This document shows positions 19,985 to 46,620 of a DNA stretch of 64,000 nucleotides, piece after piece. This DNA is from Baylisascaris procyonis (Eukaryota > Nematoda > Chromadorea > Rhabditida > Ascarididae), in NCBI GenBank assembly GCA_037389465.1, contig JAZARR010000230.1:5721501-5785500 (forward strand). The letters run 5' to 3'. The translations under genes were made by a program, and so were the position numbers. Below the pieces are notes generated by a model. That model saw only the letters and a program-made list of their open reading frames with translations. It searched no databases and was not told the DNA's origin. Position 1 is the stretch's first letter, and the number at the start of each line of letters is the position of its first letter.

Positions 19985-22900
19985 ATGGAGGTGCCATTCG
20001 ATTTGGGTGAATACTTCGAAGATGCGCCCATCCAAAGACTCGATCTCAACACTCTGAAACGGCTCAACCCACGCAAATGTTGGCCTGTGCAGAAGGCCAT
20101 CGATGGAATGGGCGCCCTCTCGGCTGAGGTTGCTCCTTTTGCATAGCTTCAACTTAGCCTTTTTCGAATAGGTGACCACTGCTTCAGCTTAGTCTTTCTC
20201 GGAGGAGTGACCACTTCTTTTGAAGAAGTGACCACTGCTTCAAATTATTCCGTTTCGAAGAAGCAATCACTTTTATTGCCTATCATCTCTTATCTTAATC
20301 ATTTCTTGCATTAATTTCCTTTGACATAAAGCCTCTTTCTTTTGTGTCTCGTGTCAGTCACTATGAAAAACGCTGATGGATTGATTGCTTTCTTCTAGAA
20401 TGGCGTTTTACGAGTAAAGGCATCTAAGTGTCATCCAATATTTCCGTTTCCATTCCGCGTTCTTTCTTTAACTGAATCCTAATTTCCCCATATAGATATT
20501 CAAATTTAGTGACCGTTGAAAAAATTTTTTTTATTTGAAACTTCGAAAATGTGGGAGATAACTATCAAAAATCAGCCTATAGAAATGCACAGACCGAATT
20601 CTGAGGAACTATTTTCCACTTTTCGTCAAATAAATTTCAGAGGCATCAGCGTCTTCATATAACTGGGAGTTTTTTCCTTCCAAAGGTTGTTGAAATAATT
20701 TATGAGCCAATAACGGAATCAGAATCCATCATAAAGTTCTTTCTTTTTTCTTCCTCTCTCTGTGAAATAAAGCCTCCGAATAAGTAATGCACCTCTTCTC
20801 TGATACTTTTAGCGACAACTTATTGAGGTTTTCCAGCAAACGCATTCTGTCGATGTTCTCGTTTTGTGGGTCAGTGGTGATTATGTCACTGTTCCGACAA
20901 AATTCCTTGGTACTTCCACCGCTGCTAATACTATTACTCAACAAATTGTTTTCTATGCTTTCTAGTATAAATTTTCAATCACTCTTTGAAATCGATACTT
21001 GATGCAGCAGCTCTAGATGAAACTCTCTTCAAGAAGGATATTATCGGGGGAGGGGGAGGGGGAATCGATTTGTCACATAGTAATAGTGGGCGAATAATTA
21101 CATTTGTTTCCTTTGAGAGGAATGATGATGACAGACGTCTGTCACATTCACTAGTTATATACTCGTCCAATGACATTCCTTCATACAATGCGATAATTCA
21201 TATTTTGCTGTAGCTTGACACTAATATAAGTGAAATATTTGGCTAATATAACACTTCACGATGAATTTTTAAATTTAAGATACTCTAAAGGAAATAAAAA
21301 ACAATTTATTCATTCAGGCTCAAGGTTTGAAACGGGCACTTACCTCCTATGACAAACTAATTGATTCAGACGATGGCCAAGTGCTCTATTTAATGTGGAA
21401 AAAAGATCCGAATCGTGAGTATGTGCGACTATATTCATATTCTTTTTTTTTTGTCTTATTTCATCCTTGTTGCTCAGTGAAGTAATAATTGAGAGATCGC
21501 CGTACTCATTTTCTGTAAGTGAATTAGCACTCTAAGAGTAGAGCCAACTTTAATATTATTTGCCCTTAGTACCTAGAAGGTACGTTCAGCTATTGTGCTC
21601 AATAAAATTGATGATATTTTTACACAGCCGCTATAAATTTCTACCATTGAATATACGAAGTTTCTTATGTGGCTACTGTCCAAATTACACAGTACTACCA
21701 TCAAATTCAGCACTGATCATTTCCTATACAAAAGTGTAATAGTAGTACTTTTTCCTATGGAACAGTAATGGTAGTATAGTTTATCGTTATTCTAAACCTT
21801 TAAGTGATTACCAAAGAAACAATAATAAATCAAAAGAGTTATTCGTTTTTTATTTTTCTCTTATTATGTTATCAACTGAAAAAAGAATTTTTATCGCAGA
21901 AGTTTCCCAAATTAAGTGAATATTTTATGATTATTGCTATTGTTTTATTGATATAATTTTTCATCGTTATGATTGTATTTGAAGGTTTCTTTCCGAATTT
22001 TTTGGTTTCTGAATGCAATAAATTCAATAGCAACCTATTAATAATATTCCTTGATCAAATTTCCCATAAGAATTTTTATCTAGAAACTCAGATATCACTA
22101 AAATTTTCTATTTAGGAGCTGAAGTGTCGTTAAAAATTTTAATCTAGGAACTCAAGTATCGTCATCGGATTGCTGAAAATTGGTTATAAATGCCTCTATT
22201 TGGTGGATGCCACTATGAAAACTTTCAAGACAACACCACTGTGCATACTCGACTTCTATGTGCACGATACATTGCAAAGAAGGGGCAACGGGCATAGCCT
22301 TTTTGAGTGCATGATCCAGGTACGCTCGCTTTCAATTACCAACACTTTTTTGAAAAAAAACCTTTGATATAAAGATGAATGAGATTTTTTTATTGTTATT
22401 TATATTAAAATTATAGGGACAACAATATCTGTTGAACTTGACCTTGCTTCATTATTCGAACCCGATGTGCTTGAAAAAAAATAAACGATCGCTTCTAGCA
22501 TGAGGGTTCACCAGTGGAAAGAATAGCCATCGATAAGCCATCCGATTCATTGCTGCAATTCATGAACAAATATTACGCGCTGACGGATCCATTGTGGCAG
22601 TCTACGAACTACGTCGTCTATGCACCATTTTTTGATTATTTACAACCTTGCGATGAACTCGATAGCGCTCGGAAACAACCATCCTCCTCGAAAACCGACG
22701 CACTTCACACCGAGGTATTCACTCTAATTTGTTTATATTTTGCGATTTATTTTATTGTATTCGTTTCTTGGAGATAATGATAGGCTTATATACCCACAGA
22801 TATAAACACTCAACGAGATTATGTTGTTGCAGGCATAAACATATGAAGTGTGTCGAAGGGGTGGGCATTATATGTGCATTTGCGCGGCGTTATTTCAACT

Positions 22901-23948
22901 GAACACTCTTACAGATTACCAAAAAAAAAAAAAAAATTTTACCTTCAAAGTTTAATTGATGCACGCAAATCTTCTAAAGGATGTTCGTTTTTTTTCCGGC
23001 ATAAAACGAGAATTAAGCCGGCAAAGCTTGTGATACTTTTAAATTTCTGTAATTCCTTTCGAAGTTAGTAGATCAAGGTGGAATAATGACTTGGCCGTAT
23101 GGTGTATATTAATGCCACCAACATTCACAATTCCAACTTCTATAATTCTCGAGCCGAACTCTTATTTTCTCCAACTGAACTACCGAATAGAAAGACAGAC
23201 AGACACATACGCCTATATGCATGCGCATAGACACAACACTACAACAATACAGCGTTGCAAAGCGAATTTTTAAAAGTGTATAATGAAAAGACTTTTGAAA
23301 GGCAAGACGATTTGTTTTAAAAGGCAAGACGATTTGCCTAAAGATATCATCAGGTACCTCAATATACAGTCTTCAGGTTTTCTAAAGATAAAATCTCATT
23401 GGGAGAAAAAATGGGATGTTTTTCGTTAAATAATGAAAATTATGAGAACGAAAAAAAAAAACAAACATAGCACACCAGATCGAATTAGAAAAGGATTCGC
23501 ATTCATTCTCTTATTTGGCTTTGCTAAGCGTTTATTAGACCGATTATCATGATACAATTGTTTTTCGTTATCTAAATTTTGCAACAAAATTTGTCAACTA
23601 TCTATATGTCGTTGTTTTGCTGTTTATCGATTACGATGTTCATATTGTCGATAATTCTGTATTCGAACGTGAACTGCTTTGGATCTCAAAAGGCGGTCGC
23701 AGATGCAATAGTGGTGATAAAGAAATGTATTCATATTTATTTTTATAATCTTTATATATTTTTTCTATTGTTGATAACGAAAATTTGCATCATTTCAGAA
23801 GGAGAAAACTCAACGTGCACGAATGCAAGATTCTGTGGCCGATATTATGTACGGTGGATCAAGCTCACCAATAAGGGTCATCGCTGGTCCAGACACACCA
23901 CAAGGACGTAAAAATGCACGCGATTTTGGTCATCAGTCGATATGGTAG
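19985..23948 (+). CDS. mec-17: Alpha-tubulin N-acetyltransferase (MEC-17/ATAT1)
   Basis: Complete gene in five exons: 19985-20128, 21318-21418, 22157-22319, 22499-22714 and 23799-23948 (TAG), 257 aa; C. elegans MEC-17 is of similar length. It acetylates Lys40 of alpha-tubulin in the lumen of microtubules, using acetyl-CoA. Seen: the family N-terminus MEVPFDLGEYF; the GNAT core IGYKCLYLVD and PLCILDFYVHDTLQRRGNG (acetyl-CoA loop, residues 123-127); and AIDKPS with the conserved catalytic Asp at residue 148. The acceptor of exon 3 selects donor GTATGT at 21419 over the overlapping GTGAGT at 21415, because only the former keeps frame. The exon 1 donor (GTTGCT) is weak and is followed by a 35-bp repeat. 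The last exon, a basic tail with MYGGSSSPIRV, is less conserved and rests on phase and splice signals. In worms the gene acts in touch neurons. Confidence 0.95.
20146..20271. repeat. 35-bp tandem repeat in mec-17 intron 1
   Basis: Units at 20146-20180, 20181-20215 and 20237-20271, plus a 21-base truncated unit at 20216-20236. Each begins GCTTCA and ends AGTGACCACT or a close variant, with TTTCGAA in the middle. The array begins only 17 bases after the exon 1 donor. Confidence 0.9.
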
Positions 23949-25853: not shown

Positions 25854-25867
25854 GTCGTCATGACAAC
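25854..25867 (+). promoter_or_regulatory. X-box (RFX/DAF-19 site) of osm-1
   Basis: GTCGTCATGACAAC is a perfect match to the nematode X-box consensus RYYNYYATRRNRAC, a 14-bp imperfect palindrome. It lies 74 bases before the osm-1 ATG and upstream of the putative trans-splice acceptor at 25919-25920, within the distance typical of C. elegans ciliary genes. Known: DAF-19, the sole worm RFX factor, drives IFT genes through such sites. Inference: osm-1 here is under the same control. Confidence 0.8.
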
Positions 25868-25918
25868 TTCAATGCAGCGTTTCACTGCATTCGCATCAAT
25901 TCTGCATGCGCAATCAAC

Positions 25919-25920: not shown

Positions 25921-25940
25921 CTCTATCTGTCTATACAACT

Positions 25941-28900
25941 ATGCGTCTCAAATATTTGCAAACAATTCTTGAACAGCAGGTAACCTGTTTCCTATTGTAT
26001 CCAATTCGTTCATATTTCCATTCCGCACGTGATAGGTGTGACAACTAGAGGGCTTTATGAAAATTGGATGGGAAACATCAGCCGGAAGTTGATGATGTAG
26101 ACCTCTGTGTTACTAGAAGGAACCGATTACATTCGATGGTTTTGGGATTCAAGAATGCTTGATGCAGGTGTTGTGGATTTTTACATATCAAAGATCACGA
26201 GATGTGTCTGAGGATGGAATGGTGGAAAGGTCAATGATGGAAAGCACTATATTTGGAGTGAAAAGTGCTGTGTGAGTATGTACAATATGACTGAATGTGG
26301 GTGTACGAATGTCGACGATAAGCCTTGAGGTGGTGGACATAGAGTAATGATAACCAAGGGACTAGTTTGCGGCGGTCGGTTACCGACAGAAGAAATTTTG
26401 ATCCGTTATCATCACTGATATCACATAAGTGATATACACCAATTGGGGGGGGGCTTGCTAGTGAGTAAAAGCTGTGGGGAATTTTTTCGTCTTTGAATGG
26501 GATTTCCTACCGATGAGTCTGAGTACATTTGTGAGTCCACCTGGAAGCATCTTTATTTGTTATATTTGCTCAAAAATGAGAAAATTTATTTGTTGATTCA
26601 TCCATATATTATTTGTCAAGTATCAAGATGTAAATAGTTGCACTGAAAAATTTATATGGGAACAAAAGAATAGAAAAAAAGATCGAAGATTTTATACATA
26701 ATCGATTTACTTCATGAAATGAATAACGCTATCGAGTGTTTCCAATTAATCGAGCGGAAAATTAACATTGATGATATTCATTAGATGTGATATCCGATCC
26801 GGAGTAAATTCATATACTTCTGCAACAAATATCTTATCATACATGATGATATATAGTTCCCGCATATAGAACGTTTATCTTAGTACTGTATTTGCTTAAG
26901 TACTGAGCTATATTAAGGATGGAGCCGCTAAAATAGCGGCATTAGATTGGTCGCCGAATGGTGCCAAGCTGGCCGTAGCGACTGCAGATCGTTCCATTGT
27001 ACTATTCGATGAAAAAGGCCAACGACGCGACAAATTCCCTACAAAGCCGACGGATTCAAAAGTTTACTCCAAATTCTATAATTTCTTTCTGCCTTATCAA
27101 GAAAATCTTTTGTGAAGTGTTATATGAAATAACGACAGTTGATGCTACTATGAACAGACTTTGAATATATGCAAGATAGAGGAGATAAGTTTTCTAACCA
27201 AATATGAGAGTGATCTATTAGTGTGTGTGTGTGTGAATTAAGATTGTCTATCAAAAGTATCACAACAAAAAATGATGCTATTTGTAAGTTACTCGTCCCC
27301 TATCTGTATATTTAATCGTCTTTTTCGTCCTTAATTATGCATCTTTATCCCTAAGTTAGCGCAGGTCCATCCAAACTAAACCAATTTCACCTGACCACTC
27401 CAACCTAACCAACCGTAGACGAAGCAATAAAATTATGTTTGCAAAAATGAGTAGCCCGAAAGCAATACACATGCACCAGGATATCTCAGTCAATAATGTT
27501 TCCAAGTGGGAACTTGTCTCAGGAGACTTGAACCTACTTTCACTTCAAATGGAATAGAACTTGATAAAGAGAATAGAAGAGACTTTTTTTAGCATCTAAT
27601 ACGGTTTGTAATAAAGTAGTTAGCCTACTATGAACTCCAATCAGCATACTACCGCCACGAATTGTTTTGTTTTAGTACGGTAAGAAGAGTTATTTGGTTA
27701 AGACGATTGTGTTCTCACCAGATTCGACTCGTTTGGCTGTCGGACAAACCGATCAAATCGTTTATGTCTATCGACTTGGGGAATCATGGTCTGTATTGGA
27801 AAGTTTTCATTTAATTTTGTGTATTGCTTTAGCATTTCATTGCTCATAGCCTATTTAGGAAAGTGTTCATCTTCCCTGTTAAATAGTTTTTCTTGTATAG
27901 AAGTCCATGAGACAGCCGGCGAAAATGAACCCTACAATAGTCACGATCTACCATTATTGATATCTCCATAACTAGTTCAGAAACCCTCAACTCAGATCAC
28001 AAGAAGTCATGCATTTGCATTGATTATATCAATTACAGATTGAATGCACCCCTAATGTCCTCAAATACAATTCAAATACAGCGTTAATTTCAACGTGATC
28101 TGCCAATATTTCTTTCACTAAACCATGCACGATTGATTAACATATATGTGAAATGATCAGTGTAACATACCTCACAGTAGTATTTCACCGTCATTGAGTT
28201 CTTAAATTTTTTGAAAATTAATTAAACAAACCTCACGACAACATTTCTTCGATATTTGGCTCTTTTCTTTTTTACAAATTAATCAATCTTCATCGATTAG
28301 AAGCACTCAAAAAAGCGGCTGAAAATATAAATAACATAATTACCAATTAATTGCTCGCATTCTTTATAAGGACTGTACTATTTCCCTAGAAATGTGGCCA
28401 TAAAGGGATATTTTCAAGGGACGAGAAGAAAGTGATATGTAATAAATTCACACAATCATCGGCCGTCACTGCGATGGTATGGCCAAGTGACGAACGTCTT
28501 ATTGTGGGTTTGGTCGATGGCAAAGTCAGACTCGCCTCATGTAAACACAACAAATGCTCAACGCTATATCGAACTGATGTTTTCGTTACTTCAATTGCAC
28601 TTCAGTATGTTCGTTGTTTCTCTTTAGAAATAATTACTTGGCTCAGTTATTTCCACTTTACGAAGAATACCGACCGTGTCAGTGACTAATATCATACTGT
28701 TGACTTGTTATCAGTGATTTACATCTCGTAGTAAAATATTATATCAGTGATTAAATTTGTATAATTCATTGGAAGCATTGAAAAGGCGGAGAATTACAGG
28801 ATAATTCAGTGGCATCTTGTAAAGCGCACATCAGCGATAGTGAAATGTTCCATAAAACGCCTTTTGCGTCCTGTTATTCCATCACTTTACAGCGATATAT

Positions 28901-31900
28901 TTAGCTTTTGAACAGCTCGCAAAAGTTGTGGAAAAGAAAACTTCTCTTATTTGAAAGTATCGTCTAATGGTGAATTTATAGGCCAACTGGTCGTTCGTTC
29001 GTATCCGGCCACAGTGATGGTTCGGTGATTTTATTTTCGTTTGAAAATCGTTCGCAAAGTAAGATCTTCACCCATCAATGCCCTCCATATGCATTGGCGT
29101 TCACGTCTAACGGCATCGTAGCAGCGGGTTGTGATCAACGGGTTGTTTCCTATACGGAATCTGGTCGTGTTCTGCAGCAGTTCGACTACAGCAATGAACA
29201 AAAAGAGAAGGAATTCACCGTTGCGATCAGAGACCCTTCTGGACAAAACGTCGTCGTTGGCAGTTTTGATAGGTTTCTCTCAACACATTATTAGTTCTCG
29301 CAAAGAGATGCATCAGCACACTTATATTTGAAGACCATATCTGCGTTTCATTTGCTACAGCAAATAACAGTAAATTAAGAACAAAAGCAAAGTGAGCGGT
29401 TACGTTGAATATGCTTTATGGGCGGTGATACGGTTGCTTACTGTAATGCTAAAGAGAAGTTACATACCTATATCCTCCCACTATATCTATATAATTGCAT
29501 ATATGACATATAATTCCACGCCTTGTCCTTTGCAAAACTTCACGCCTTACCCCCTGCATGATGTTATTTCTAAATAGAAGAACGCTTTGCTTTTTTTCGA
29601 AAATTTTTTCGTATGACTTTTTATAAAATTTAGTTTAGTTCGTTTCTTATCCGATTTCTTCTCTTCTCGGCAGTCAGCTGGATGCATATATTATAGAGTG
29701 CGATTATTTACTTGGAATCAGAGACGTGGAGCACTAGATGAGGGAAAACCTCTCGAAATTCGATACCTTTATACAATAAGTGCTCTTACATGGAGCCCTG
29801 ATGGATCGACTATTGCAGTGGTGAGTTTACCTTTAAATTAAATCGAATGGTGCAATTGAATATCGTCTTCTTGCAGTATTGCAACTCAGATGCAGCATGC
29901 AACAAAAAAAACTAAAAAAGTACTACGGAAGGAGTTGCAAAAAAAAAAAAAAATCCTTAAATGCAATTGAATACGTAATTTAAAATTTCCGATGGTAATT
30001 TGCTACGATTAAGGGAACACTATGTGGGAGTGTAATAACGCTGGATTGTTGCCTAAGACGATCACTTCTCAAAGGTCGATTCGAGATAACCTATGTGGCA
30101 TCCTCTCATGTACTCATCAACGATATCAATAGCCAACAACGTGTCAGCATTCGTTCATCTAAAGGCTATCCCATCGATGAAATTAAGGTCTTTTTATAAA
30201 CTATCTCATTCACATACATTTCACCCACTGAAAACAAATTTCACGTTCAATGTTCCTTGTTCCCTTTACTGAACTATTTGGAAATTAACAAAAAAGATAC
30301 ATATATATCAAAATTCGAATATTCTCGCAATAGCGCTAATTTCAGATTGGATAAGTTTATACTCTATGTGGCTGTAGCTGCATGCAATATTGTTTTGAAA
30401 TTCTCTGTGGTTCTCAGAAATGCATCAGAATACGGAATAGTTTCACTCAATAGCTGAGAGACCAAGGAGGGAACGTATGGTCGTTACTTTTTGCGAGTCG
30501 TAATGAATGCAAGCTTAGGTGGAATTGATCTAACTAGATGAAGCAAGCAGTTTCAAAATCGAAGTACTGTTGTGAATGGTAGTTATTTTCCAGGTGATGG
30601 GTCGTGATCGCTTTGTAGTTGCGTATACGCCGAATTCGTTGATCGTTGCCGACATGATTACTGAGAAGAGTAGTGAAGTGACATGGCAGAGCGCTGGCAA
30701 TGAAAGATTCTTCTTCGACAATGAAAACGTCTGTGTCATCGTCAACGCCGGAGAGGTTTCAAAAACCTCTTGTAAAAGTCCTGAAAAGCAAACAAATGTT
30801 TTGAGGAGGATGTAAAATCTATGCAAATAATTCTCGATTTCCGTTACAGTTTAGATACATTCAGCGTTTTATTTCTTATGAAAAATCCATCACAATTCCT
30901 TGCTTATTCTGTCTCGGATGTCATACCACTGTGGTCTATATGATGCGCCATTCTCATGCACTTTAGATGTTGCATAAGTTCAATTACAGTTCCGTAATTT
31001 TCATCTTATATTACAGTAGCCGTTACTCTTGCGGAACAATATACTGAAAAGACGATATTGTAGGTGAATTTGGTTGAATACGGTATCGATGAAGTAATCG
31101 GTTGGATCCGAACCGAACTTATCTCGCCTCACTTACTCTCCGTGCGACTAACCGAGCGTAAGCAAGGTGGTGGCGAAAGCATCAAACGAATCGCCTATCT
31201 ACTTGATGTAAACACAATTTCCGTCGGTGAGCCGCATTAATTAGTAAAAGGGATTTTCATTATGAATGCCAGAGTCGAATGCGCTATAAAATGTGAGCTT
31301 ATTCTTGTTGCCTACTAACTTCAGGTGGGAATGGAGACAATTTGATTTCCCATAAGACTTGATCACCAAAATAAGCTTTTCCGACCAATACAGCAGACAA
31401 CAGTCGAAAGTGCTAGGAGTTTCAACTATAATATCTATAAGAGATTTCAGTTCCCTATACAATGAATCGATTGTTTCAGTTGATCTCATAACGAACACAC
31501 AATTGACACAGATCTCGCATCCGGTAGTCATCGACTGGCTTGAGGTTTGTATATATTCAGCTAAATACTTCAAGTCAGTTAACTATAGCTTTTTGTCGTT
31601 TTCGTTTTTATTCTCACTACTCTCTACTTAGTTCCTTCATTAATTGAGTCGCATTACAACCGCGATGGTAAAAAAAAAATGTTTTACGGAAATGAAACGA
31701 GTGTGAGAAAGAAGTGACGAATGCAATGAAGGAAAAAAAGATGAAAGTAGCATAAAATGGAATGGAAGGTTTTCGCAGTTAGAAGTGCTGTTGCAAGATA
31801 TAATACCTGCATATTTGTTAATACATTCAGCGTAATTCAGCTAAGTGAGAGCGCAACAAAACTCTTATACCGTGATCGTCGTTCACGTCTATCGCTTATT

Positions 31901-34900
31901 GATTTGGATAGCGACCGTAAAACAACGCTTCTTAGCTATTGTACATATGTGCAATGGGTTCCCAACAGTGATGTGATCGTTGCACAATCCGGCGAGCAAC
32001 TCTGCATTTGGTATCAGGCTGATAACCCGGAACAGGTAGGTCCTCATTTAAATTGTTGAAGTGACACTACTCACAAGTCAGTTATTCGTATAAACAGGTC
32101 GATAATAAGCTGGTCGTATCATCAACACACTCTCAGGAAAGCTGATAGCCCTTATTTCCTCAGAAAGTGTGAAAGGAAGAGTTAATATATCAGATACTGA
32201 AAACGACCTAATTTCGTCTTCATCCTCCCTCCTATAAAAGTGAGAATGTTTTTCCGTTAAATTAACCAAGTTCTATAGACCTCCGAAGCAATAAAAACAT
32301 AATCCTCCCCATATACTGTGCACATGGTAGAGGCATTCGGCGAATATGAAAGCTAAAATTGCTTGCATTAACAACTTCAGATGGTGATGGTACCGATCAA
32401 AGGGGACATCGAAACAGTGCTCCGCGATGAAGAAAGGACGGAGGTGATCGTTGAGGCAAGTTTCACTCATCGTTTATCATTGTTATATACTAATAAAAGC
32501 AATAGATCAAACGACATATGCGATGATGTTTACAGTTGTAATGTAACGCATCCAAATTCATTGAAAAATCAATGCAAGGAATTAGCAGAAGGCTCGAATA
32601 TCGAAAACTTTTAGTTGGAGATTTTGCCAAGTTGATAACTGCAGGAGGCGAATGCAAAGGTGGCGTATGAGCTAGATCAAACCCTCATTGAATTCGCGAC
32701 AGCTCTCGACAATCACGAATTCGGGCGTGCTGTTGACTTCCTCGAACGACGCGATGATGGTGATGCAGATGCTCTATGGCGACAACTCGCTGAGGTGTGC
32801 TTTCCAAGAAATCCTTCACAAGCACAATATTCCCAACTAAAAGTTTCATCTGATAATATCAGTCGGCTCAACTTTCAAATCAGTCCATATTTTCGAAAAC
32901 ATTTAAAATCAAATATAGAGAATATTATTATTGTCGATATAGGCGTTCTTATGCTTCCTACTATATCTTCTCTTCATCTCCACTCTTATTGAAAGTGTCG
33001 TTAAGCTATCACCTATTACTGTCATTCCAGTATATGAACCTTATTTGGTATTGTATAGTACCGAATAGTATTCATCTAAATGGAAAACGTTTCTTATATC
33101 TCAACTTGTAAATCTGCTCATCTTTTTCGAGATAATAAATTCATAGACGGGCAAAATTGTCGACCAAAGTTTTCCTCAGCGAGTTTTGCATAGAATATAA
33201 CAATCAAACTTTTGATAAGCTGCAAACTTCGTGTTATAAGAGCATTCTAAATGTTTTATTTAACGGTTCGTTAGTGTCAGGTTGCTCTCGATCAGCAACA
33301 ACTTCTGATTGCGCAACGATGTTATGCAGCGGTTGGTGATGTATCACGTGTGAAGATGCTTGCCGACACTATTCGAATCGCCGATGAGGCTGCTAAGACA
33401 ATCGGCGGCGATGGCAAACAATATTATAAAGTACGTTTGTGCTTTAAGGATTACCTCCATTCCCATTTATACGATATTGCTCCGGCTGCATAAGTTTGGC
33501 AAAAATGTACCGTTGAAGTCCTGCTCGTTGCCATCGTACGAAAAACGTTGGACAAAGTGTATCCGGTGCAATACCCTCGCAATTCAGTGCAATACCCTCG
33601 CAATTCAGTTCGTTGACTAACCTTCATTGAATACCCATTCAGAGCTTCTTCCACCAATTGCCTCGAGGAATTTCTTCGAAAGGAATAAACTTTCCAAACT
33701 GCAGCATTCCCCAACAATGAACGTGAATCCACATGGAAACTAACGGATAGGCGGATTTTTCGATTGTTTTCATATCAAATCACTCCAATACTTGTCTAAT
33801 ATCAATCTAGGCAACTTTTTGCCTGAATGATATTCATTTGATGTGAAATTCATTGCAAATGTTTGCACTGTACACTTATTAAAAGTACGATTTGAATTTA
33901 AGATTCATAGGATGTTATATGTGTTGTGAAGAATCTTTATAGAAAATAGCATTTATGCTGTGTTAATGTTAGATTATTCGATGCAAATGCAACTTTTCTG
34001 ACCACAAATATGAATGCATAATTTGAGGTTCGTGCACGACTTGCTTTGATGAGGAAGGACCTCAAAGAAGCTGAACGAATATATCTAGAACATGTGAGTT
34101 GAAGACTTTCTTTTCCCTTCACTCCTTCTTATTCATTGTTTGCAAAAACTTGTTCATTCTTTGAGCTTATTTCTATTACAAACTTTTTAATACCAATAAA
34201 AATCGTTGAGTTGATTATAACTAAACCGATCAGCCTAATTTATTAATTTGCAGTCAGTTCTCTTGTTCTAGATGAATAGGCATTACATCAGTAATTTCGT
34301 TGCAGAATTGTCTCGATGAAGCAATTGAAATGTATCAGAATATTCACAAATGGGAAGAGGCTCTCGAATTGGCCAGAGCACGGGTATGTTCCCCGCCTTT
34401 CGCATTGCACATTTCAAAAGCACATTTTAATCGCCCCAATTAAAAATTGGAATTCCACTCGCTAATTTAGGTAGTTAATTTCGGTCAATATCTATCATAG
34501 TTATGTCGTTATGAAATCAACTAAACAAGCAGTGATAGCTTTGGAAGGACATTAATGAATCCATGATACTCGGAATGGCACCCTTTGGCCACTTCATCCG
34601 TATATCCAAGAAACAAGGCAATATTTTCAAGGTAATTCAACGGTTCAGCTCGATAGCCAGGTACAAGGTAGAAGAAGTTATGTCAATCATCTAACGGCTA
34701 AATCGATTTTCAGAATTATCCTGACTTCGAATCCTTGAAAGCGCGTTACTATCGCAATCTATTCGACTCAGGACAGGACGAGAAGGCTGCCGAAGTGAGC
34801 TTCCAAGAAACATTTTAAAGACCTACGTTTTATGCAACTATCTTCTATTCGAGAAGGACAGATGTTCCAAATTACTATTCCTCCACACTATTTCAGATAT

Positions 34901-37900
34901 CTGAACGTGAGGGAGATCTCGAAACGGCTATCGATCTCTACTTAAAAGCAAATCTGGGAGCTCACGCTGCACGTGTATTACTTTCGAGCACGCAGCTTCT
35001 GGCTAACGAGGACCTCGTTCAAAAAGTTGCCGTAACTCTTGTCCGAGCGGAACTTTTCGAAAAGGTTCTTCGCTTTATCTAACATTCATCGCCGATGTTT
35101 CATGGCTTTCAGTTAGAATGATACAACGAAGAAAAAGAGTGAAAGGGGATTATGATTTACAAACCAATATATTACATGAAATTTTAGGGGGAAAAATATA
35201 CGATCAAAAACGCTAAAGCCTTATCTCGTTTCGCCTAAAAACATGCGCGTGATGAACTTTTTGAGGACACAATCAAGTACAGTATATACTGCAATTATTA
35301 CTAATTATTATATCAAGTATTGAAACCTACGATTACTGTGGACTATTATTCGTTAACTATTATATAGCTGCGATTTCGGGGGAAGTAATAACGGTTTAGC
35401 CGGTAAAGCATCTGACCGGAAAATGAAAGGCAGCGTGTTCGGATCCCGCCTAGGATGGAACTTCTTGCCATTCATTGAATGAAAGATGTTGTATGACTAT
35501 AATATTTGGAACTGCTGTCATTCAAGAATCAAGTAATTGCCTTCCGAAAGGATCAGTCAGATCACTTCTTGTGAGGGATCGAAGTTCTCACCCGGGTGCT
35601 AAACAGGTTGAGCTTTTAAGTAGACAGTGGTGCTAGTATCAGTTTCTCATTTTTCAAGAAATAAAATAAATGAGATATTTCAGGCTGGTGATCTATTCGA
35701 AAAGACAAAAGATTTCGAACGCGCACTCGAATGCTTCCGTAAAGGGAAATGCTTCGCGAAAGCCATACAGGTATGCTGCTAATATGATGTTCTAATTTAG
35801 TTTATATAGAAAATCAGTTTTGAGTATATTATTGGAAATAAGGATGTTTGTTGCATGTTCAACTTTCAGCTGGCTCGAATCAGCTTTCCAGAGCGAGTGG
35901 TCCCACTTGAAGAAGAATGGGGCGATTCTCTGGTTGAAGATGCAAACTATGATGCTGCAATCAATCATTTTCTAGGTAAATGAATATATCTTTAATTCCA
36001 TGACATAAGGGTCACATAAAGTTCTTTAGCTTTAAATCAGAAAACGGTAAAATCTGACAGGTTTCGGGTTTTTAGTTGCACATCAATCCTACTTCGTACT
36101 GTTGTTCGACTTACCATGAAAGTGATGCGTGAGAATGCGTAATTCAATAGCAAAGTGCCTAATTTTCACCCACAGATGTCTGGGTTAGGTACCGTCTCTG
36201 ACCACCACATTAAAGAGTATCTGAATGAGGTTGGTTAAGGAGCCTTCAGCATAATAAGAGACGGCATAAGATTTTTTATTGAATAAAGCTATCTTTGTGA
36301 CTTGTTCAATTAAACAAACAAGCGAAAAAAATGTTTGAGATTATTTAGCATTGAATAATCTCAGAAAGTGGAAAAAGCGCTAAAGCATTGGAAGCGTCGA
36401 TCAGAGCGAAACAATGGAGTAAAGCGGCGCAGATCGCCGACGTTCTTGAAGATAGCGCCCTCGCGAAACAATACTATGGACGTATCGCTGAACATCATGC
36501 AGCTATTGGCGATCTCGAGGTTCACTGTTTAATTAGAATTCAATAACGCTCATACAAAATTAAATTCGACAATCAGACCTTATGCAGAACCGCAAAATGA
36601 TTGATTTCGGAGACACAAGGAAGAGGAGAAAGAATAAAGATATCTTTGAGATTAGGTTGGATTCAGCAAATTTTACAGCAAGAATCAGTAAGTTCCACTC
36701 CCCTTCCCCCTCACTCCTTATTTTTACCAGCAAACACTTATCCCCCAGAATTACTGTTCACCACAGCCAACATTTGGTCCTACAGTCTACTCACTTAAGC
36801 TTAATCCTGCACCTTACCAATACTAACTAATCCACTTCTTGAATTGGTGGAACCAATTTTTGCAGCTCAGAATCTAACCGATAAAACTTTAGAGATTCTG
36901 CCGATGAAATTTTGCATCGAGAAAGAATAGTGCTGAAAGTTCCGTAAATTGAAGTGTTCGTAACATTAAACATAACATCGACAAGCTCAAACATCAACTA
37001 AAACTGCGATAGCGATAACGCTCAGCAAATACTTTGGTCAACCGTTCAGGCAGAATCACCAGGACTTCACAGAACAGCAGTCGGATAACCATCATGACAT
37101 CAATAAAAGTGCACAGCCAAATATATAAGCTTGAGTGGGCAAATTGCTGCCGTAAAAAAGCAAATATTAACTGAAGTGAATATTCTTCGCTCAGAGAGAT
37201 CCTGATGGGAAGCGACTGGTCCGGAATCGGGGACTATTAGCATGTGCTCAGTGGCCTCTTGGGTGGCAGATGGGGTCGCTGAAGTTCGATGCCTTCGGAG
37301 TGACGATAACGATGAAAAACCGTCTCATGGAAGATGACCTTATGTTGGTCATTCATTCGTGGACGATTAATCCACTCGGAAAAATGATGCAGCACAATAT
37401 CGGTATCTTCAATACTTTCATTTGCACAATAATACAAACTGACATTTGCAGCGTGCCGAAATGCTGTATATCGAGGCGGATATGCAACGTGAAGCAATTA
37501 ATATGTACAACAAGGCAAATCGTTGGGCAGATTCACATCGAGTAAGTGAGTTATCATAATACATTCCATACCAATCAAACTTCGTTTGTACTTTTCACTG
37601 TCACAACGAGTGCATTATAAAGAAACGATCATTGCTAAAATAGTATCAGCACTACAATGCAGAGTTTCACTGCGAGCATCACCTCCGTATATTTGTATGT
37701 TAGTGTAATGGAATAAAATAAGAGGAAATGTTTCAGAGGTATATATTATCTCTCGAATTTGATGCAACATTTTTCAACTGTTCAATGGAACTGTATCGTC
37801 AAATTTACGATGTGAATCGATGGAATTATTAATTTCAGTTGGCCGCTGAATTTCTGGGACAAGAGGAGACACAAAAAATGTATGGAAAGTTAGCACAGGA

Positions 37901-40900
37901 CATGGAAGAAGCCGGTCGTCTTAGTGATGCCGAACAGGTATTGGTCACTTGCCGTTAGGCTCTCTTCTAGAAATTCACCACTTCAATCCCGAAACCATCC
38001 CTTCAGATCTGTTAATTTTCTTTATCTCGAATCATATGTATTATTGGGCGTCATATAAGAATCATTAGGCCGAACCGCTGCTTTACAGATAGTCAGCTGC
38101 TTTAATCAGGAGGTGATAATTCATGAGTGGCTTAGAAGTAGGTTGGTGGATGCGGTATAGGTAAGCCTGAATTCAATCGAAGATAAAGGATCGGATGGAC
38201 TCCACGGGCTCGAATTTTACAGACCATCCTGTTACAGTTCCCAATAGCGTTCCTTTCTTGAAAATTCTGCTAGATTTAACCCGAGATTCAGCTGCATTAA
38301 ATCAATTTGACAGAAAACAGTAAAACCTAGCGAAATTAATGGATAACCAATGAATTCTCTATTGGTTCGTATGTTTAGCTGAAACACAAATAAATGAACG
38401 ATGCACACTGCACATCTTTTCTCATATGAACGTTGTACTTGTTACAATTAAATAGTGCAAATATCCAACTATTACAGCTCTATATCTCAATCGGACAGCC
38501 CAATAAGGCGATCGCTATGTATAAAAAAGTGGATCGTATCGATGAAATGATGGCACTTGTCGAGAAATATCACTCTGAACACGTACAGGTCATTTTTCCC
38601 TTATAAAAGCTCACAGTATATCTTCATGCCTATGATGTAATCAATGTCGTCCTATCTATTCACGCTTGTGAAGCATATTACATCTGATGTATAATTACAA
38701 TAACAGAGTTTTTTAAAATAATATTCAGCAGTGATGATATAAATAAAATAGAGAGACCGTTTTTAGAGTCATAATTTTATAGATAGGCTTTTCTCTTTTT
38801 TGAGAAAGATTTAAAGCGACGAAGAGTTGTATAATTCATTTATTTTTTTTTATTATATTCAACAGGAGACACATAAGCATATCGCCGGTGACTTAGAGGA
38901 AAGGGGCGATTTGAAAGCAGCTGAAGAGCAATATCTCAAAGCCGGAGATTGGAAAAGTGCGGTGAATATGTATCGGGCCGCTGAAGAATGGAATGACGCC
39001 TATAGAATTGCGAAACAAGAAGGTGGTGATGCGGCACAGAAACAGGTTTTTATTGATGTATTTGCATCACTTTCATACAAAATAATAGAATTTGAAATGA
39101 TAAAAGAATTCGAGTAAATTATGCTAATTTGGTGATAAATACATCAATCACATTTTATTTAACGCTGATAAATTATTTGATATATCCTCAAATAATGATA
39201 GAAACGTTTCATTTGTTAAATGATTTATTTATATTATTAAGTATTATCCACCGTTCTATAAAGTATAATCTAAGTTCGATTAGAAAATATAATGGAAGCT
39301 GCTTACTGACTATTATAAAAAAAAGCTTTCATAAGATATCGATAACATTCTATTCTTATAGCGTATATAGATAGCATAGTAAATGTGATATAAAATTACC
39401 ACATAAAATTAGATATTCAGATGTGATATACAAAATTTGCATAAAACATTTTCAGTATTTATTCATATATGCAAATTTATTAAAGGTTGCATATTTGTGG
39501 GCGAAAAGTTTGGGTGGCGATTCAGCGGTGAAATTACTACAGAAGTTCAACTTGCTTGACGAGTCAATTGATTTTGCTTGCGAGAATGGGTTCGTCTAAT
39601 AACCTAAATACTTTTCTTTTACAACTTTTCCCCACCATACATTCTACGAGAATTTCCTTGAAAATATATGATTTTTACAAACTTTCGGCTTTACTAATGG
39701 AAATAATTTCATTTATTTATTATCAAAGTAGAAAGCGATGGAAATTTGAATAAGGTGAGCATTATTGAGGAGTACTGATTGCTAAGTCATTTTCTTCAAA
39801 TCATTATACCTTAGGTATTTTTCACGTCAGATTATTGCTGTGATTTCAAGCAGTAATAAAAGTGAGTAATAACATTGTTGTTTCGCAGACGCATAATCGA
39901 TAGATGTAATAGTATAATAGTTTTTTGGTTATGATCATATAATGCGTCGAGTAGAAATGGAATAATAATTTATGCTTATGTTTCGGATCTTTGAGCCATA
40001 ATCATAACACATCAAGCTGAAACTTGATAGTAATAAAAATATTGTAGAGCATTCGATTTCGCTTTCGAATTGTGCCGTTTGGGTGCAAAAGCACGTCTAC
40101 CGTTTGTGCATCTAAAACTAGCACAGCAATTGGAAGAAGAGGGACAATTCGAGAATGCTGAAAAGCATTATATCGAAGGTGGTAAACCTAAAGAAGCCGT
40201 TCTAATGTATGTGCATGATCAGGATTGGGATAACGCTGAACGTCTTGCCAAGTTTGTCGACTTTTTATATACTGTTCCCATTCGACATACTGGTGTTTCT
40301 TCATGCCAGGATTAGTAAACTTTTTCTCTGCACTATTTAAATAGATATATAGCACAAATTTATAGATTAATTGAAAATAAGAAGGTTAATGACAAATTCA
40401 AAAATTCTTCCAAACGGGATGTCCAAATGTTTGATAAGAAAAAGATCTTCAATCTGTAATTTCTTGTTGCAGCTTTCAATTTTGGTGATTATCTTTTGTA
40501 TTTCTTTTTGCATCATCTATAACGGACAGTTCAGAAAAATGATACTTAAATGATGAGACATTGCTGTTTAAGTAAAAATATAATCTGTTTTACTTATTGA
40601 GAACAGATTTCTTCTGCATAAGTTCGAAATGAAATCCACGAAGCGGTAAACGCAATCATGAGCAATTGTTTTTTAAGAGAACATTGTGAGGATGCACTCT
40701 CGGATGTATTCATCGGTCAAGCCCGTATGGCTATTGAACAGAAAGATTTTCCACGAGCTGAAAGCTATCTTCTTCGTGCTAATCGTGCCGATATTATTCT
40801 TCGCTATTATAAAGAATCGGCGATGTGGCCTGATGCGCTTCGTATTGCTAAAGATTACATCCCAACTGCCTTACCTCAATTACAGGTATATTACACTCAA

Positions 40901-43900
40901 TGAAAGTATCTGTGATTCATAAATATTCATGCATTCGACAATTATAACACTATTTTGTAATTGTAACATCGTTAAAGCTCCTTTATATTATATTCTGTTC
41001 TTCACTATCAATATTCTTTAGTGAGCAATATGTCGGATTCATTACAGGAGGAGTACGAAGAAGCACAATTGAAATCAGGTGCGAAAGGTGCGCTATCGTT
41101 TATGGCTCAAGGTCATGATTGGGAAACACAAGGTGAATATCTCAGAGCGATTCAATGCTATCTGAAGGTACAAGAACCGGAAACGACCGATATTAATATG
41201 ATTGTAACTGCACTCACGAGGGTATGTTCCTAAATTTTAAGCAACCCACAATTTGGTAAATGTTCTCATAGATGCTACATTTTGTGCATTGAATATTGGA
41301 AAATAATGGGAAATGAGTCACTGAAATTGCGAAAGGATAGATGACGTCATAGGGAGGTATAAAAAGAATAATTCATTTGCCTCATAACATTTATATCAGC
41401 GAGAAATGGAATTGAACAGCAACGATATTGAAAGAATTTGTGATCGTAAATGTTTAATATTGCAGTAATAGTTAATTGTTGCTTATAAATAATTCTTTAA
41501 AGGCAGGCGATTTAACAACGAAATTTTTATCGGATGATGAGAGTGCACAAATTATTGATGAAATATGCGAACGATTACTTAGCTACAGAAAGTAAGTAAA
41601 TATTTTTGAGGGAATTTTGTATTAAGAAATAGAAAATAATGAAATGAGAAACTATTAAAATTAAAATTTTTTAAATATTAAAATAAAAAAATTAAAAATT
41701 GAAATATTAAAATATTACAAAAATTAAAATTTTTGTAATAAGAAAATAGAAAATAAAGGATTCATTCTCCGAGAAGTCCTTTTATTCATTATTTCTATTT
41801 CTATAAATATCTAACAAATTCAGTAAGGATACTGCATTCGAAGCATTATTCTATATATCGTTAAAATGATCTCTTAGTCCGTTTATAGCTGTTGGATGAC
41901 TCGAATAAAGTCAATCATTGATTAGCTTAATCGGTAATAAATTCGATTTGCAAATTCCTCTCGCTGATAGTTAAGATTTGCAAATTCATATAGAAGTAAA
42001 TGCTCATGTACCAATCGTATCGTTGAGAAGCACTAACACAGGAAACATTTTAAGCAGTTCTTATGGATAAATTTACCAAAATTTGAATCTATTCATGTTA
42101 CGACATTGTAATTTTGGACAATATTCTGCCACTGATTGCAGATTTACTTACCTCATATGTTGGGTAAGGGGGAAGTGGGTAAATATCAGTATAATAAGTC
42201 ATATTTATTTATGAGAAATGTATCGCAGATTCACCGAAGCTGCCGAAATATTTATGGCGTCGAATCGACCCGATAGTGCTATAAAGGCATTTGTGCTTGC
42301 TGGACAATGGGCCAAAGCGAAAAAGGTACTCACGTCTATTTAATCCATCTATAAATTCGAGAATATTTCAAAGGAATGTTTTAAGATTAGCCTCACATAC
42401 TTAAAGACTTCTTGCTTTATGATTAAGGAATAATATTTAAAGTTTACTAAACATTCTGAATACGTGACTGTTACTTCATTAATAATTATTCGTAATATCG
42501 TCTTTATCTTTTATATATAATAGTAATTCTTAATAAATCGTTTATGGTCAATATCAACTTATGCCTATGAACACACAATTTTGATGTACGAATGAAATTA
42601 TTGCTTATAGTTACGATTTGCCACCTCAGTTATTTGCCATTTCCGCGACTCAAAAATTTGTAACGACCAATAAAGAGTCTCTATGTGAAAGCAATTTCAT
42701 TTAGGTAGCGACTGAATTGCTACCGGAAATGGCTGATTTTGTCGACGAGAAATATAAAGAGTCGCTAAGGAACGAAGGCCGATTAGGCGAATTGATCGAT
42801 GTTGATGCAGTCAGTGCGATCGATCTACTTGTAGAGAAAGGCTTCTGGGAGAAAGCACTCGAGACGGCTAAACAACAAAATGTTCCACAATTTCATTGTT
42901 TTATATCCGTTTGCAACAATCACATAATCATATCTATAGGAAAGAAGTATAGGATTGCCTATTATATTGATGAAATCATGAGGTACAAGTTTCAGCCTCA
43001 GAAAATGTTTGTTTCCTTATGTTCACTAAAACTTCGGTACAAATATACATTACACTTCTTATTCAGTATTACAAACATAATAGCTATATAACAGCATTTT
43101 CACAAAGTATTTTACTATAGTAGCAATCAGTGATGAAGATATACAATACTCCGTTTTCCAGTTCAATTCTGTTTCTTTTTTTTTCTGGATTTGAGATTAA
43201 TTTAATTGTTGGATTGTATGAGAGTGTTTTGATCGATGCATAATTCAAATTTCTAGTATCAGCCATTAATGGACAAATATGTGGCACTTTATGCAACGAA
43301 TCTCATATCGCAAGAACGCTTCGCCGATGCTATCGAGGCATTTGAAAAATATGGTGCATCGAGTAATCCACACAATTTCAACATCTATCAAAGACTTATT
43401 TCACAAGTAATATTTATTATTTCTTATTAATTAATTGGCATTTGGTTAAATTTATAGATCCCTTAGCCTCACCTCACTTCTCTAGTATTCACTCTTCAAA
43501 GAAAATTTGTAAAGAAACAGTTGGTGAGTTCATTTCCAAAGAAAGATTATGCTGAATCTGTTCTTATTATCACGAAATATATCATAAAAGTGAATAATCA
43601 CTTCTCGATGATTGATTAAATTTCGTGCAGCATTGCAATTTTTTTCTTCTCATTGCAGTCAATTTCAACTTCAACTTTAAACTTTCAAAGTTCACTCGCC
43701 GTTCTAAGGTGCTCCAAGGTGGAGATCGAAAGAGGCACTGAAGCTCAGAGGCGGTCAGTCGATCTGGAATTAGGATCAGATCCTTGAAACAGTTAGCGAA
43801 CAAAGGGCTGGTACAGAACTAGATCAAGTCCAATATTTGCTAGCCAGAGCCAGATTCAGTTAAGTATTTGCCACCTCAGGAACCTATACTGGTAAAAATA

Positions 43901-46620
43901 TTCTATGGAAGGCAAACATTAACTGCACTTCATATTACGCTGATCGTTAGGTAGCTGTTGTCTTCATTACATGATGATAAATCGAGCTGACCACTAATTG
44001 TGCCCAATTGAGGTAATGAATTCACGCTTGGAGATCGCAGTGGGATCTTATGAAGTGTGGTCACATCTGCGTAATATGCTTCTACTGATCTGCGAGAGTC
44101 TTGATGCCGATTCATCGGCTGACGATGAGCCCAAAGAAGTAATCATTCCTTTTGCATGCATTATGAATTACAATTAACCGGATTATTGAAACCTTCAAAA
44201 GAATTCATTACTGCATTTACTACCTTCATGTACTTCACGATATTCGGCTACGCTTGCATCTATAAACTTTTTATTCGTCGTTCGTCATCGCTCAGTAATA
44301 TGATATTTGTTAATCTCTTATCCCTTCGTTCCTCGTAGCCTGATTTTTCATCCTTTAATTAAGAGCTGCACATTATTCAAGTAGCAAAGATTGTGTTGCA
44401 GATATTTGGAAGATATCTCTACGCTGCACATTATGGTGCATTGCGTTGTGCACTCTCTGAGTTTGGTAGTGTTGAAATGGAGGAGATGATAGCGCAGATC
44501 TGTATCAGTCTTCTGCGTTATTCCGATCTAGTGGCTGCCGATAAGGTTTTCTACGAGGCCGGAATCACCTGTCGAGTTCGTATTTCTAAATTTATGCATT
44601 CCGACTTCCTTTTGATTCGATTTCATCTCTTTCTTCTTTTTTTTCCAAACGAGCGATAATATTATTGAATTAAATTCAGAAGCAAGGTGGTCGACGAGAG
44701 AAATTAGCATTCGTCCTTCTCAATCATTATCTCGATCTAAACGATGCAATCGAAGAGCAAGACCCCTCATTAGTGGATGCATCTATTTTCGAAGGAACTG
44801 ATATACCACAGGAAGTACCCCTTCCAGAGACTACATTCCTGACGGTATCGTTTTAATTTTCATGTTGAACATTGTAATAATTTTTGTCTCCATAGCTCAG
44901 TTATAAGTTGAAGAGGAATGTTTTTGTAGTAGCGAAATGAAAACACAATGTGATTACCAGTATTGTCATTTCTTGTTTAATGCATGCAATTTGCTTGGAT
45001 GCAAAACCGATATAAGCAATGAAACAAGAAAATGGGGATTCACTCCCCTCCCCCCCCTTCCCTCTCCCTAGATTGCTTAATGAGCACTGAAACATATGCT
45101 TGCCAAGAAACATCAATTTTTTGGCATATTTCATTAACTCTTATTTCAGAACTTGCAAACATTCTTCCTTAGCTTATAAAAAAGTTTTTTTTTTTTTTAA
45201 TTTCATTGTTCTTCCCTTGTCAAAAGGAATAATATAAAACCAAATCGGAGGTTATATTCATTTTGAGCAATATTCAGCATTCGAAAAGTGGCGGCTCTAT
45301 GTTTACTTCAACAACGATGCATACTTTTAACTTGTTTTGATTATGTGCTGTCCAGAACGTTTTTCGAAGAGTGTCACAACGACAAAATAATTCAGATCTA
45401 AACAAATTCATTTCAGCTTAGATTCTCGTTAACCATCTTTTTGTGTCGATGAATTTTCTGACCGAACAGTTGGAAATTCACCCAGATTTGGCAACGGATG
45501 GGGATATTAGTGGTTTAGATGTCTTACTGAAAGTTTCGAGAGTACTCTATATTTTGGCTGCTCCTCAAACTTCAAAATTAGTAATTAAAATTTTCTGCAG
45601 TTTGCCAGCTTCTAAAAGTCAACACTTTTGGGGTTTTGCCGCTTTCTGGCAGTTTTATCGAACTTCCTCCCATTAAACGGTTGCGTCTATATGGCTGTTG
45701 ATGCGCATGAAGGAGTTATCCTGGAGAGTAGCTGAACACTGCTATTAATATCATTGTGATGTATAGACAAAAAAATATGAAATTATGCATTGTTTTTTCA
45801 CTCATGTAGGAAAATTATTTGAGAAAGAAGAGCATGAAGAAGTGAAGGAATGGGTGTTGGCTATTTCTATGGAACAAAGCTTGGAACGAGCATTGCCACT
45901 CGATTCGAGAGGTAATTTCGAAGGTAGCCTTCTGAATAGCAAAGGTGTCATGCATAAACCCTGCATCATTACAGGTTTATTTTCATTCCTATTAATTCAT
46001 ATCAAGTATTTGTGGATTCTTTCTTTGTATTTCGAAAATAGAATCGAACTGAATTTTATCTTCGCGTTCATTTTTTTTCTCATTCAGAAATGACACATTT
46101 CAGTCTATTTTCTTGAATATAGTTGAATGTTCTGCACAGTTTCCAGTTTTGTATTGTAGAAATTTGCAATTTGCTTCCCGTCGATATCGTTATACATACA
46201 TTCCTTTGGCGTTTAAACTGTGGCCGAGTCACTTCGATATACACATTAATGCTGCTCTTTTGTATGAAATGTCTATTCGGAAAGCATTTTAGCTTTGTAA
46301 ACGTTTCACTTTTCCATGTTATTTATACTTGTATATTTTCTTTATTTTTTCCCAACATGGGACACTAAAGTAAATCAATAAATCAATAAACCAATAAACA
46401 AAATAAATTTGTAAACTGATCTTCAAGAAGGCATATTTGATATACAGGATATGCAGTATATGATGATGCCAAAGAATTCGGTGGATCAGGAAAAGTGGCG
46501 AACAAAGATGCATGGAACAAATTCGTGATGGCACAGAAGACGAAACCAAGCGAGAATGCGAGTGATGTGCAACAATTCATAGCGCGATGGACTGGAACCC
46601 CTCTTTCGTTGTCACTATGA
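25941..46620 (+). CDS. osm-1: Intraflagellar transport protein 172 (OSM-1/IFT172)
   Basis: Complete 38-exon gene, 1747 aa (human 1749). Exons: 25941-25979, 26918-27061, 27676-27788, 28419-28604, 28982-29272, 29697-29820, 30014-30187, 30594-30755, 31064-31226, 31480-31544, 31841-32035, 32381-32455, 32645-32794, 33281-33430, 34028-34093, 34306-34383, 34714-34794, 34897-35064, 35684-35770, 35870-35975, 36365-36519, 37452-37541, 37839-37937, 38478-38588, 38866-39045, 39486-39589, 40048-40251, 40678-40885, 41048-41221, 41503-41591, 42229-42325, 42705-42881, 43257-43406, 44013-44138, 44402-44575, 44680-44844, 45824-45974, 46448-46620. It is the largest IFT-B subunit and links trains to turnaround at the ciliary tip. 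Exons 1-12 (aa 1-577) encode two WD40 propellers ([20 protein letters not shown]-like RRDKF, PPYALAF). Exons 13-38 encode a TPR-like helical solenoid ([42 protein letters not shown]) and the IFT172 C-terminus. All junctions keep phase. Intron 12 is GC-AG. Exon 34's start is the least certain. Confidence 0.97.
32456..32644 (+). other. GC-AG intron (osm-1 intron 12)
   Basis: The exon ends GTTGAG and the intron begins GCAAGT, the classic AG|GCAAGT form of a GC donor. It ends CTGCAG. Splicing here gives [14 protein letters not shown], which has exactly the length of the human segment. The nearby GT (GAG|GTGATC at 32443-32444) would delete four conserved residues. Confidence 0.8.
33567..33608. repeat. 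Perfect 21-bp tandem duplication
   Basis: Two identical 21-base copies (TGCAATACCC...AATTCAG) lie head to tail in osm-1 intron 14. Perfect identity points to a recent duplication. Confidence 0.9.
35375..35455 (+). repeat. tRNA-like sequence, SINE head candidate
   Basis: Inside osm-1 intron 18, GGTTTAGCCGGTAAAGC resembles a tRNA A box/D arm. CATCTGACCGG follows like an anticodon stem, and GTGTTCGGATCCCGCC resembles the B box/T arm at normal tRNA spacing. The folding is imperfect and no CCA-proximal stem closes, so a functional tRNA is unlikely. A Pol III-derived SINE or a tRNA pseudogene fits. The body may extend to about 35640. Confidence 0.5.
41635..41760. repeat. AT-rich low-complexity tract with hairpin
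   Basis: Runs of ATTAAAA-type sequence in osm-1 intron 30. They include the inverted repeat TTACAAAAATT / AATTTTTGTAA around a two-base loop near 41715-41738. No coding content. Confidence 0.7.

What the first reader, a model, noticed from the sequence alone, without database searches (positions are those of the whole stretch)
25854..25867. Perfect X-box 74 bp upstream of the osm-1/IFT172 start
GTCGTCATGACAAC matches every position of the nematode X-box consensus and lies where DAF-19 sites sit in C. elegans ciliary genes. It implies that RFX control of IFT is conserved in this worm, and it gives a motif for finding its other ciliary genes.
Basis: partly seen in the sequence, partly recalled or inferred. 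Interest (0 to 1): 0.75.

Follow-up and report, generated by a model that had tools for sequence, protein, structure and literature searches.

The report
RFX-type X-box before worm osm-1
A well-formed binding site for the cilia master regulator RFX/DAF-19 sits 87 bases before the start of the cilia-transport gene osm-1 in a roundworm genome, a sound but expected example of a control switch already known from other worms and from flies.

Summary
GTCGTCATGACAAC lies at 25854-25867, 73 bases before the ATG (25941) of an IFT172/OSM-1 gene. A consensus match in 64 kb is not rare by itself (0.57 expected). Scored with half-sites of RFX-regulated Drosophila genes, it is the window's best site (16.85; next 12.34). 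None of 511,888 simulated positions and none of 1,447 real 150-bp stretches, motif-selected sites cut out, reaches it. The first exon matches IFT172 starts of other animals. One RFX DNA-binding exon was found, differing from human RFX1 at 2 of 42 core residues. Six ciliary genes were located and four start codons placed. Three have an X-box-like site within 100 bp (osm-1 -87, dyf-3 -87, mksr-2 -72); che-13 has none in 627 bp. Best explanation: a DAF-19/RFX site driving osm-1 in ciliated neurons of an ascaridoid nematode. It is a new member of a known kind, as RFX control of osm-1 is known in flies and C. elegans. The strict motif is a weak gene finder here. Side leads: an upstream alpha-tubulin acetyltransferase gene, and a GCGTT-TGCA element beside the X-boxes.

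The parts
25854..25867 (+). X-box GTCGTC-AT-GACAAC, predicted DAF-19/RFX dimer site; half-sites palindromic at 5 of 6 positions
25941..25979 (+). osm-1 exon 1, [16 protein letters not shown] at 25941, GT donor at 25980
   Evidence: similar starts in other nematode and animal IFT172 proteins
25941..46620 (+). osm-1/IFT172 gene, 36 exons and 1672 aa in the model (no junction could be set between 41176 and 42224, and a small exon near 32378-32455 is not in the model)
   Evidence: PDB IFT172 8bd7_S E 4.8e-82; 90% to Parascaris univalens OSM-1
25877..25889 (+). GCGTTTCACTGCA, an element of the form GCGTT-N2-4-TGCA also found between X-box and ATG of dyf-3 and of an unnamed gene; function unknown, noticed after the fact
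25871..25891 (+). 7-bp inverted repeat AATGCAG / CTGCATT right after the X-box, overlapping the element above
   Evidence: read from the sequence
19985..23948 (+). alpha-tubulin N-acetyltransferase (MEC-17/ATAT type) gene, tandem upstream neighbour, stop codon 23946-23948, 1992 bp before the osm-1 ATG
   Evidence: PF05301 E 9.1e-54

Best explanation
The 14-mer is a functional X-box. A dimer of the worm's RFX protein (DAF-19 orthologue) binds its two inverted half-sites GTCGTC and GACAAC, separated by AT. Because it lies about 87 bp before the start codon, it activates transcription of osm-1 (IFT172, an IFT-B subunit) in ciliated sensory neurons together with other cilium genes such as dyf-3 and mksr-2. 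Shown here: site, position, gene identity, presence of an RFX gene with an intact recognition core, and non-random match. Inferred: binding, activation, cell type.
For: Highest matrix score in 64 kb and beyond the controls. Its reverse complement GTTGTC-AT-GACGAC has the same half-sites as the X-box GTTGTC-AG-GACGAC of Drosophila CG15161/IFT46. The Drosophila osm-1/IFT172 gene has an X-box GTTGCC-AC-AACAAC 123 and 103 bp upstream in two species, and its reporter is shut off in dRfx mutants (PMC2375033, passages and section 8). C. elegans osm-1 is DAF-19 controlled (PMC1794439 passages). One RFX DNA-binding match in the genome, E 2.4e-20, near-identical to human RFX1 1DP7. dyf-3 has ATCACCATGGAAAC at exactly -87 and mksr-2 TTCACCATGGCAAC at -72. 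Fisher's combined p for mksr-2, dyf-3 and che-13 without osm-1: 0.005.
Against: che-13/IFT57 shows no site in 627 bp before its ATG, which sits 4 nt after a splice acceptor, so its promoter may lie further off. The starts of mksr-1 and mks-1 were not reached; the 1.35 and 1.55 kb pieces read hold no site scoring above 2.5. The dyf-3 site alone is weak (77 of 1,447 stretches score as high). The loose consensus is not enriched genome-wide, and 4 of 21 strict sites at other loci score higher than osm-1's without a recognised ciliary gene beside them. The predicted proteins of the two closest relatives listed do not show osm-1 exon 1: Parascaris starts further in, Toxocara joins exon 2 to the upstream gene. 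No expression, transcription-start or binding data were available.
Confidence: 0.9

Rival explanations
1. Chance match: with hundreds of consensus matches in 273 Mb, one happens to lie before a ciliary gene.
For: GTHNYYATRRNAAC: 0.57 expected in the window and 36 of 100 shuffles hold one; no genome-wide excess over the reversed pattern. Beside 20 strict-motif loci the only recognised possible cilium gene was a tubulin, and 4 of their 21 sites score higher than osm-1's.
Against: The matrix score is not reached in the simulated or real controls; position within 100 bp of the ATG, the -87 dyf-3 site and the -72 mksr-2 site.
Confidence: 0.05
2. The site is real RFX DNA but serves the neighbouring alpha-tubulin acetyltransferase, or an operon of both genes, rather than osm-1 alone.
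For: The acetyltransferase gene lies 2 kb upstream on the same strand. Predicted proteins of Toxocara canis and Mesorhabditis spiculigera run it into IFT172, so the gene order is shared.
Against: The X-box is downstream of the acetyltransferase stop codon and directly before osm-1. The acetyltransferase has only a weak best site (4.92; 94 of 1,447 stretches as high) in its own 150 bp.
Confidence: 0.03
3. The site is bound by RFX but has no regulatory effect, for example because transcription starts elsewhere and the osm-1 message is trans-spliced from a distant promoter.
For: No transcript data; a possible acceptor (CAACAG) at 25915-25920.
Against: Position agrees with functional X-boxes in C. 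elegans (60-160 bp, PMC551537 passages) and Drosophila (8 genes of Table 2 have it 56-146 bp upstream in both species).
Confidence: 0.02

Closest known systems
C. elegans X-boxes of DAF-19 target genes (osm-1, osm-6, che-2, bbs genes)
   Same: RFX sites about 100 bp before the ATG of ciliary genes, including the osm-1 orthologue (PMC1794439 and PMC551537 passages). The AT spacer as a rule and the C. elegans osm-1 site near -86 are recalled, not from a call.
   Different: Left half-site GTCGTC is not the GTTNCC form that I recall as usual; different nematode group; no functional test here.
Drosophila dRFX X-boxes of oseg2/osm-1 (CG13809) and IFT46 (CG15161)
   Same: Same target gene family at similar distance (123/103 bp); half-sites GTTGTC and GACGAC of CG15161 are identical to those here read on the other strand.
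   Different: Spacer AC or AG/AA instead of AT; distance to ATG differs.
RFX1 DNA-binding domain (PDB 1DP7; its being a complex with X-box DNA is recalled)
   Same: The worm's RFX exon matches it at 2.3e-24; 2 of 42 residues differ from KLEP to RIK.
   Different: Only part of the domain (profile 30-78 of 79) was recovered in one exon.

Membership tests
RFX/DAF-19 X-box | Two inverted half-sites matching RYYNYY N1-3 RRNRAC | tested here: met
   GTCGTC-AT-GACAAC fits all positions; consensus printed
RFX/DAF-19 X-box | Better match than background DNA | tested here: met
   0 of 511,888 simulated, 0 of 156,077 real positions, 0 of 1,447 stretches, motif-selected sites left out
RFX/DAF-19 X-box | Near-palindrome, over-represented in RFX targets (PMC2375033) | tested here: met
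   GTCGTC versus reverse complement of GACAAC = GTTGTC, 5 of 6 positions equal
RFX/DAF-19 X-box | Lies within about 60-160 or 250 bp of the ATG of a cilium gene | tested here: met
   -87 to -74 of the IFT172 ATG (ranges)
RFX/DAF-19 X-box | Cognate RFX protein encoded in the genome | tested here: met
RFX/DAF-19 X-box | Shared by other ciliary genes of the same genome | tested here: inconclusive
   3 of 4 genes with placed start codons counting osm-1; 2 of these outside the strict consensus; che-13 negative; four planned family searches did not complete
RFX/DAF-19 X-box | Conserved in promoters of close relatives | not testable with these tools
   The genome search states that G000 has no relatives; no search of other collections for nematode DNA was made
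RFX/DAF-19 X-box | Bound by RFX and needed for expression | not testable with these tools
   needs bench work

The most novel reading that the evidence does not exclude
Ascaridoid ciliary promoters may be two-part: an X-box plus a downstream element GCGTT-N2-4-TGCA (relaxed CGTT-N1-4-TGC) between X-box and start codon, perhaps an initiator or a site for a partner factor. The strict form occurs in 3 of the 4 X-box-to-ATG intervals examined (osm-1, dyf-3, an unnamed gene), the relaxed form in all 4 including mksr-2, against about 0.02 expected per 75 nt for the relaxed form. Against it: absent before che-13 and the acetyltransferase, near only one further strict-motif site (L048), and found after the fact.
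Probability: 0.15. Interest if true: 0.5.

Novelty: new member of a known kind. Interest (0 to 1): 0.3.

Why it matters
It extends promoter-proximal RFX control of an intraflagellar transport gene to an ascaridoid nematode, outside the Caenorhabditis species compared in the papers seen here. Amphid sensory organs matter for drugs: C. elegans amphid mutants are linked to ivermectin resistance (start of abstract of PMC6237615 in a search listing). The open-access library holds no paper with X-box, DAF-19 and Ascaris together, nor X-box, DAF-19 and Pristionchus pacificus; I recall a study of DAF-19 in Pristionchus, which these searches did not show, so absence from this library is not absence from print.

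Tried and rejected
Rejected: treating the consensus match alone as proof (one search shows it is not). Rejected: a good X-box for the acetyltransferase gene within 150 bp (weak best site). Rejected: a real acetyltransferase-IFT172 fusion in this genome, because the upstream gene ends in its own stop codon at 23946 and osm-1 has its own conserved first exon. Tried with little gain: naming genes beside 20 loci with strict motifs; 53 hand-picked coding-like ORFs, fewer than one search listed and some of them lengthened, gave only Tubulin and Der1. These loci hold 21 of the 50 sites listed out of 203; 9 further listed sites were read at 0.9 kb, two of which (L053, L055) are the same sequence on two contigs; the other 20 listed and 153 unlisted sites were not read, apart from a 500-base test piece beside one (L047) that I did not analyse. 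The gene behind L053/L055 (X-box GTCTCCATGGTAAC at -96) stayed unnamed. FKH sites: seven RYMAAYA matches in 25400-25990 are too short to mean much; the FKH-8 paper itself found no canonical-site match in its ChIP peaks (passages). C-box: its sequence was not in the passages seen, so not tested. PMC5838959 passages gave nothing of use.

Limits: the real background comes from the window and from flanks of motif-selected loci, not from annotated promoters. The matrix uses 26 sites of Table 2 of PMC2375033; I left out sites further than about 350 bp, the second CG9595 site (264 bp), the second CG15161 pairing and the unresponsive genes, and it includes the two Drosophila osm-1 sites. Only spacer 2 was used for the chance counts. 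The names mksr-2, mksr-1 and mks-1 and the first exons of dyf-3, che-13 and the tubulin gene rest on Pfam hits plus resemblance to recalled sequences. The dyf-3 and mksr-2 sites were found by taking the best-scoring site of each promoter. For Fisher's test osm-1 was given p = 0.5/1,447.

Full report
The window is G000:C228:5721501-5785500 of a 272.8 Mb genome. The IFT172 protein modelled here is 90% identical to Parascaris univalens OSM-1 over 93% of the query, and 85% to a Toxocara canis protein over 78%.

The site. GTCGTCATGACAAC is at 25854-25867 on the + strand. Its half-sites GTCGTC and GACAAC are inverted copies at 5 of 6 positions.

The gene. tblastn with a recalled human IFT172 gave an ordered series of exons from 26915 to 46623. 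A splice-aware join starting at ATG 25941 gave 1672 aa, 46.6% identical to the guide over its length. The beta-propeller part matches the PDB chain 8bd7_S, named IFT172, at 4.8e-82, the only PDB sequence below 1e-10. The first exon [13 protein letters not shown] resembles MRLRYLATIVEQQ, MKLKYADTIVEQQ and similar starts of other nematode proteins and MQLKHLKTLL of vertebrates, so the ATG is firm. The predicted proteins of the two closest relatives do not show it: Parascaris (P0001) starts further in, and Toxocara (P0004) joins exon 2 to the upstream gene. The model has no set junction between 41176 and 42224 and lacks a small exon near 32378-32455 that the Toxocara protein shows.

Chance. By consensus alone the match is weak evidence: 0.57 expected in the window, and 36 of 100 shuffles hold at least one. 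The whole genome has 1032 + 1006 matches, fewer than the reversed control's 1772 + 1750. A stricter palindromic form, GTYNYCATGRNRAC, has 203 sites against 149 for its reversed control. I therefore built a half-site matrix from 26 X-boxes of dRFX target genes in two Drosophila species (Table 2 of PMC2375033, section read), which is independent of this worm. The osm-1 site scores 16.85, the best of the window; the next is 12.34. No Markov position of 511,888 and no real position of 156,077 reaches it, and no 150-bp stretch of 1,447 does. The strict-motif sites that had brought in those loci were left out of these controls; 4 of the 21 score higher (L027 and L034 17.1, L040 and L041 18.8). So equally good sites exist elsewhere in the genome, but they are rare.

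The factor. The genome search found one RFX DNA-binding match at E <= 0.001 (C169:4077660-4077806, E 2.4e-20). Its core matches human RFX1 1DP7 at 2.3e-24, differing at 2 of 42 residues.

Other ciliary genes. Answered family searches found three B9 genes, CLUAP1/dyf-3 and IFT57/che-13. With osm-1 that makes six, of which four start codons could be placed. dyf-3: ATCACCATGGAAAC at -87, score 5.26, within the degenerate consensus but not the strict one. mksr-2: TTCACCATGGCAAC at -72, score 9.72, one base outside the degenerate consensus. che-13: nothing in 627 bp, best score in the last 150 bp -1.38; its ATG is 4 nt behind a splice acceptor, so the promoter may be elsewhere. mksr-1 and mks-1: start not reached, best scores 2.27 and 2.44 in the pieces read, and one degenerate-consensus match in the mks-1 piece. 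In 1,447 background stretches, 6 reach the mksr-2 score and 77 the dyf-3 score; Fisher's combined p for mksr-2, dyf-3 and che-13 is 0.005, and with osm-1 3e-5. Searches for BBS5, BBS1, BBS2 and IFT46 never got an answer, so the enrichment test is small.

The reverse test was less favourable. Among 20 loci around strict sites (21 of the 50 listed of 203), 53 hand-picked coding-like ORFs gave only a tubulin and a Der1 family match in Pfam. The tubulin, a beta-tubulin by eye, has sites at -613, -1593 and -2274. The strict consensus would miss dyf-3 and mksr-2. So the 14-mer is a poor finder of ciliary genes here without position and orthology.

What is known. In Drosophila the osm-1/IFT172 gene has an X-box GTTGCC-AC-AACAAC 123 and 103 bp before the ATG in two species, and its reporter is fully shut off in dRfx mutants (PMC2375033). 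The same paper warns that an X-box upstream of an ATG is not by itself predictive of RFX dependence in flies. In C. elegans osm-1 is among the first known DAF-19 targets (PMC1794439 passages), and X-boxes sit about 100 bp before start codons (PMC551537 passages). FKH-8 works with DAF-19 there (PMC10393296 passages). The present site is the expected ascaridoid counterpart. Binding, activation and cell type are inferred.

Two leads. First, the gene directly upstream (19985-23948, same strand) is a MEC-17-type alpha-tubulin acetyltransferase (PF05301). Predicted proteins of Toxocara canis (P0004) and Mesorhabditis spiculigera (P0037), 2 of the 120 listed, carry both parts, which means the gene order is shared by an ascaridoid and another nematode genus. 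In this window they are separate genes. Second, GCGTT-N2-4-TGCA occurs 10 times in about 221 kb on both strands (4 in the window, the osm-1 one included, and 6 in L024-L043), yet lies between X-box and ATG in osm-1, dyf-3 and the unnamed L055 gene; a relaxed form is in mksr-2 too. Within 90 nt of the 30 strict sites read, the relaxed form occurs at L053/L055 (one sequence) and L048 only, and it is absent from the 80 nt before che-13 and the acetyltransferase. It was noticed after the fact, so it is only a lead.

Noticed in passing
window 19985-23948 (+): Alpha-tubulin N-acetyltransferase gene directly upstream of osm-1 in tandem; predicted proteins of Toxocara canis and Mesorhabditis spiculigera join the two, so this pair of microtubule/cilium genes is neighbouring in other nematode genera too and may be an operon in some.
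   Followed up: partly
window 25877-25889; L057 199-210; L055 539-550: Element GCGTT-N2-4-TGCA between X-box and ATG of three genes, relaxed form in a fourth; about 0.02 expected per 75 nt for the relaxed form.
   Followed up: partly
L029 (C32:940200-948500), reverse strand: A beta-tubulin gene (by eye; Pfam Tubulin) with three X-box-like sites at -613, -1593 and -2274 of its ATG, possibly a ciliary tubulin.
   Followed up: partly
L053/L055/L059 (C82 near 5650260; C84 near 86297): Unnamed predicted gene starting MESVRAKNDELEQLERRLFAIDSKLQHAR with X-box GTCTCCATGGTAAC at -96 (1 of 1,447 stretches scores as high); no significant Pfam or protein match; candidate ciliary gene. The two contigs carry the same sequence over 911 bp.
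   Followed up: partly
L057 (C172) versus window: The dyf-3 and osm-1 X-boxes start at exactly the same distance, 87 bp, from their ATGs.
   Followed up: yes
window 25871-25891: Inverted repeat AATGCAG/CTGCATT immediately downstream of the X-box; the L055 promoter has a different CTGCATCGA/TCGATGCAG inverted repeat.
   Followed up: no
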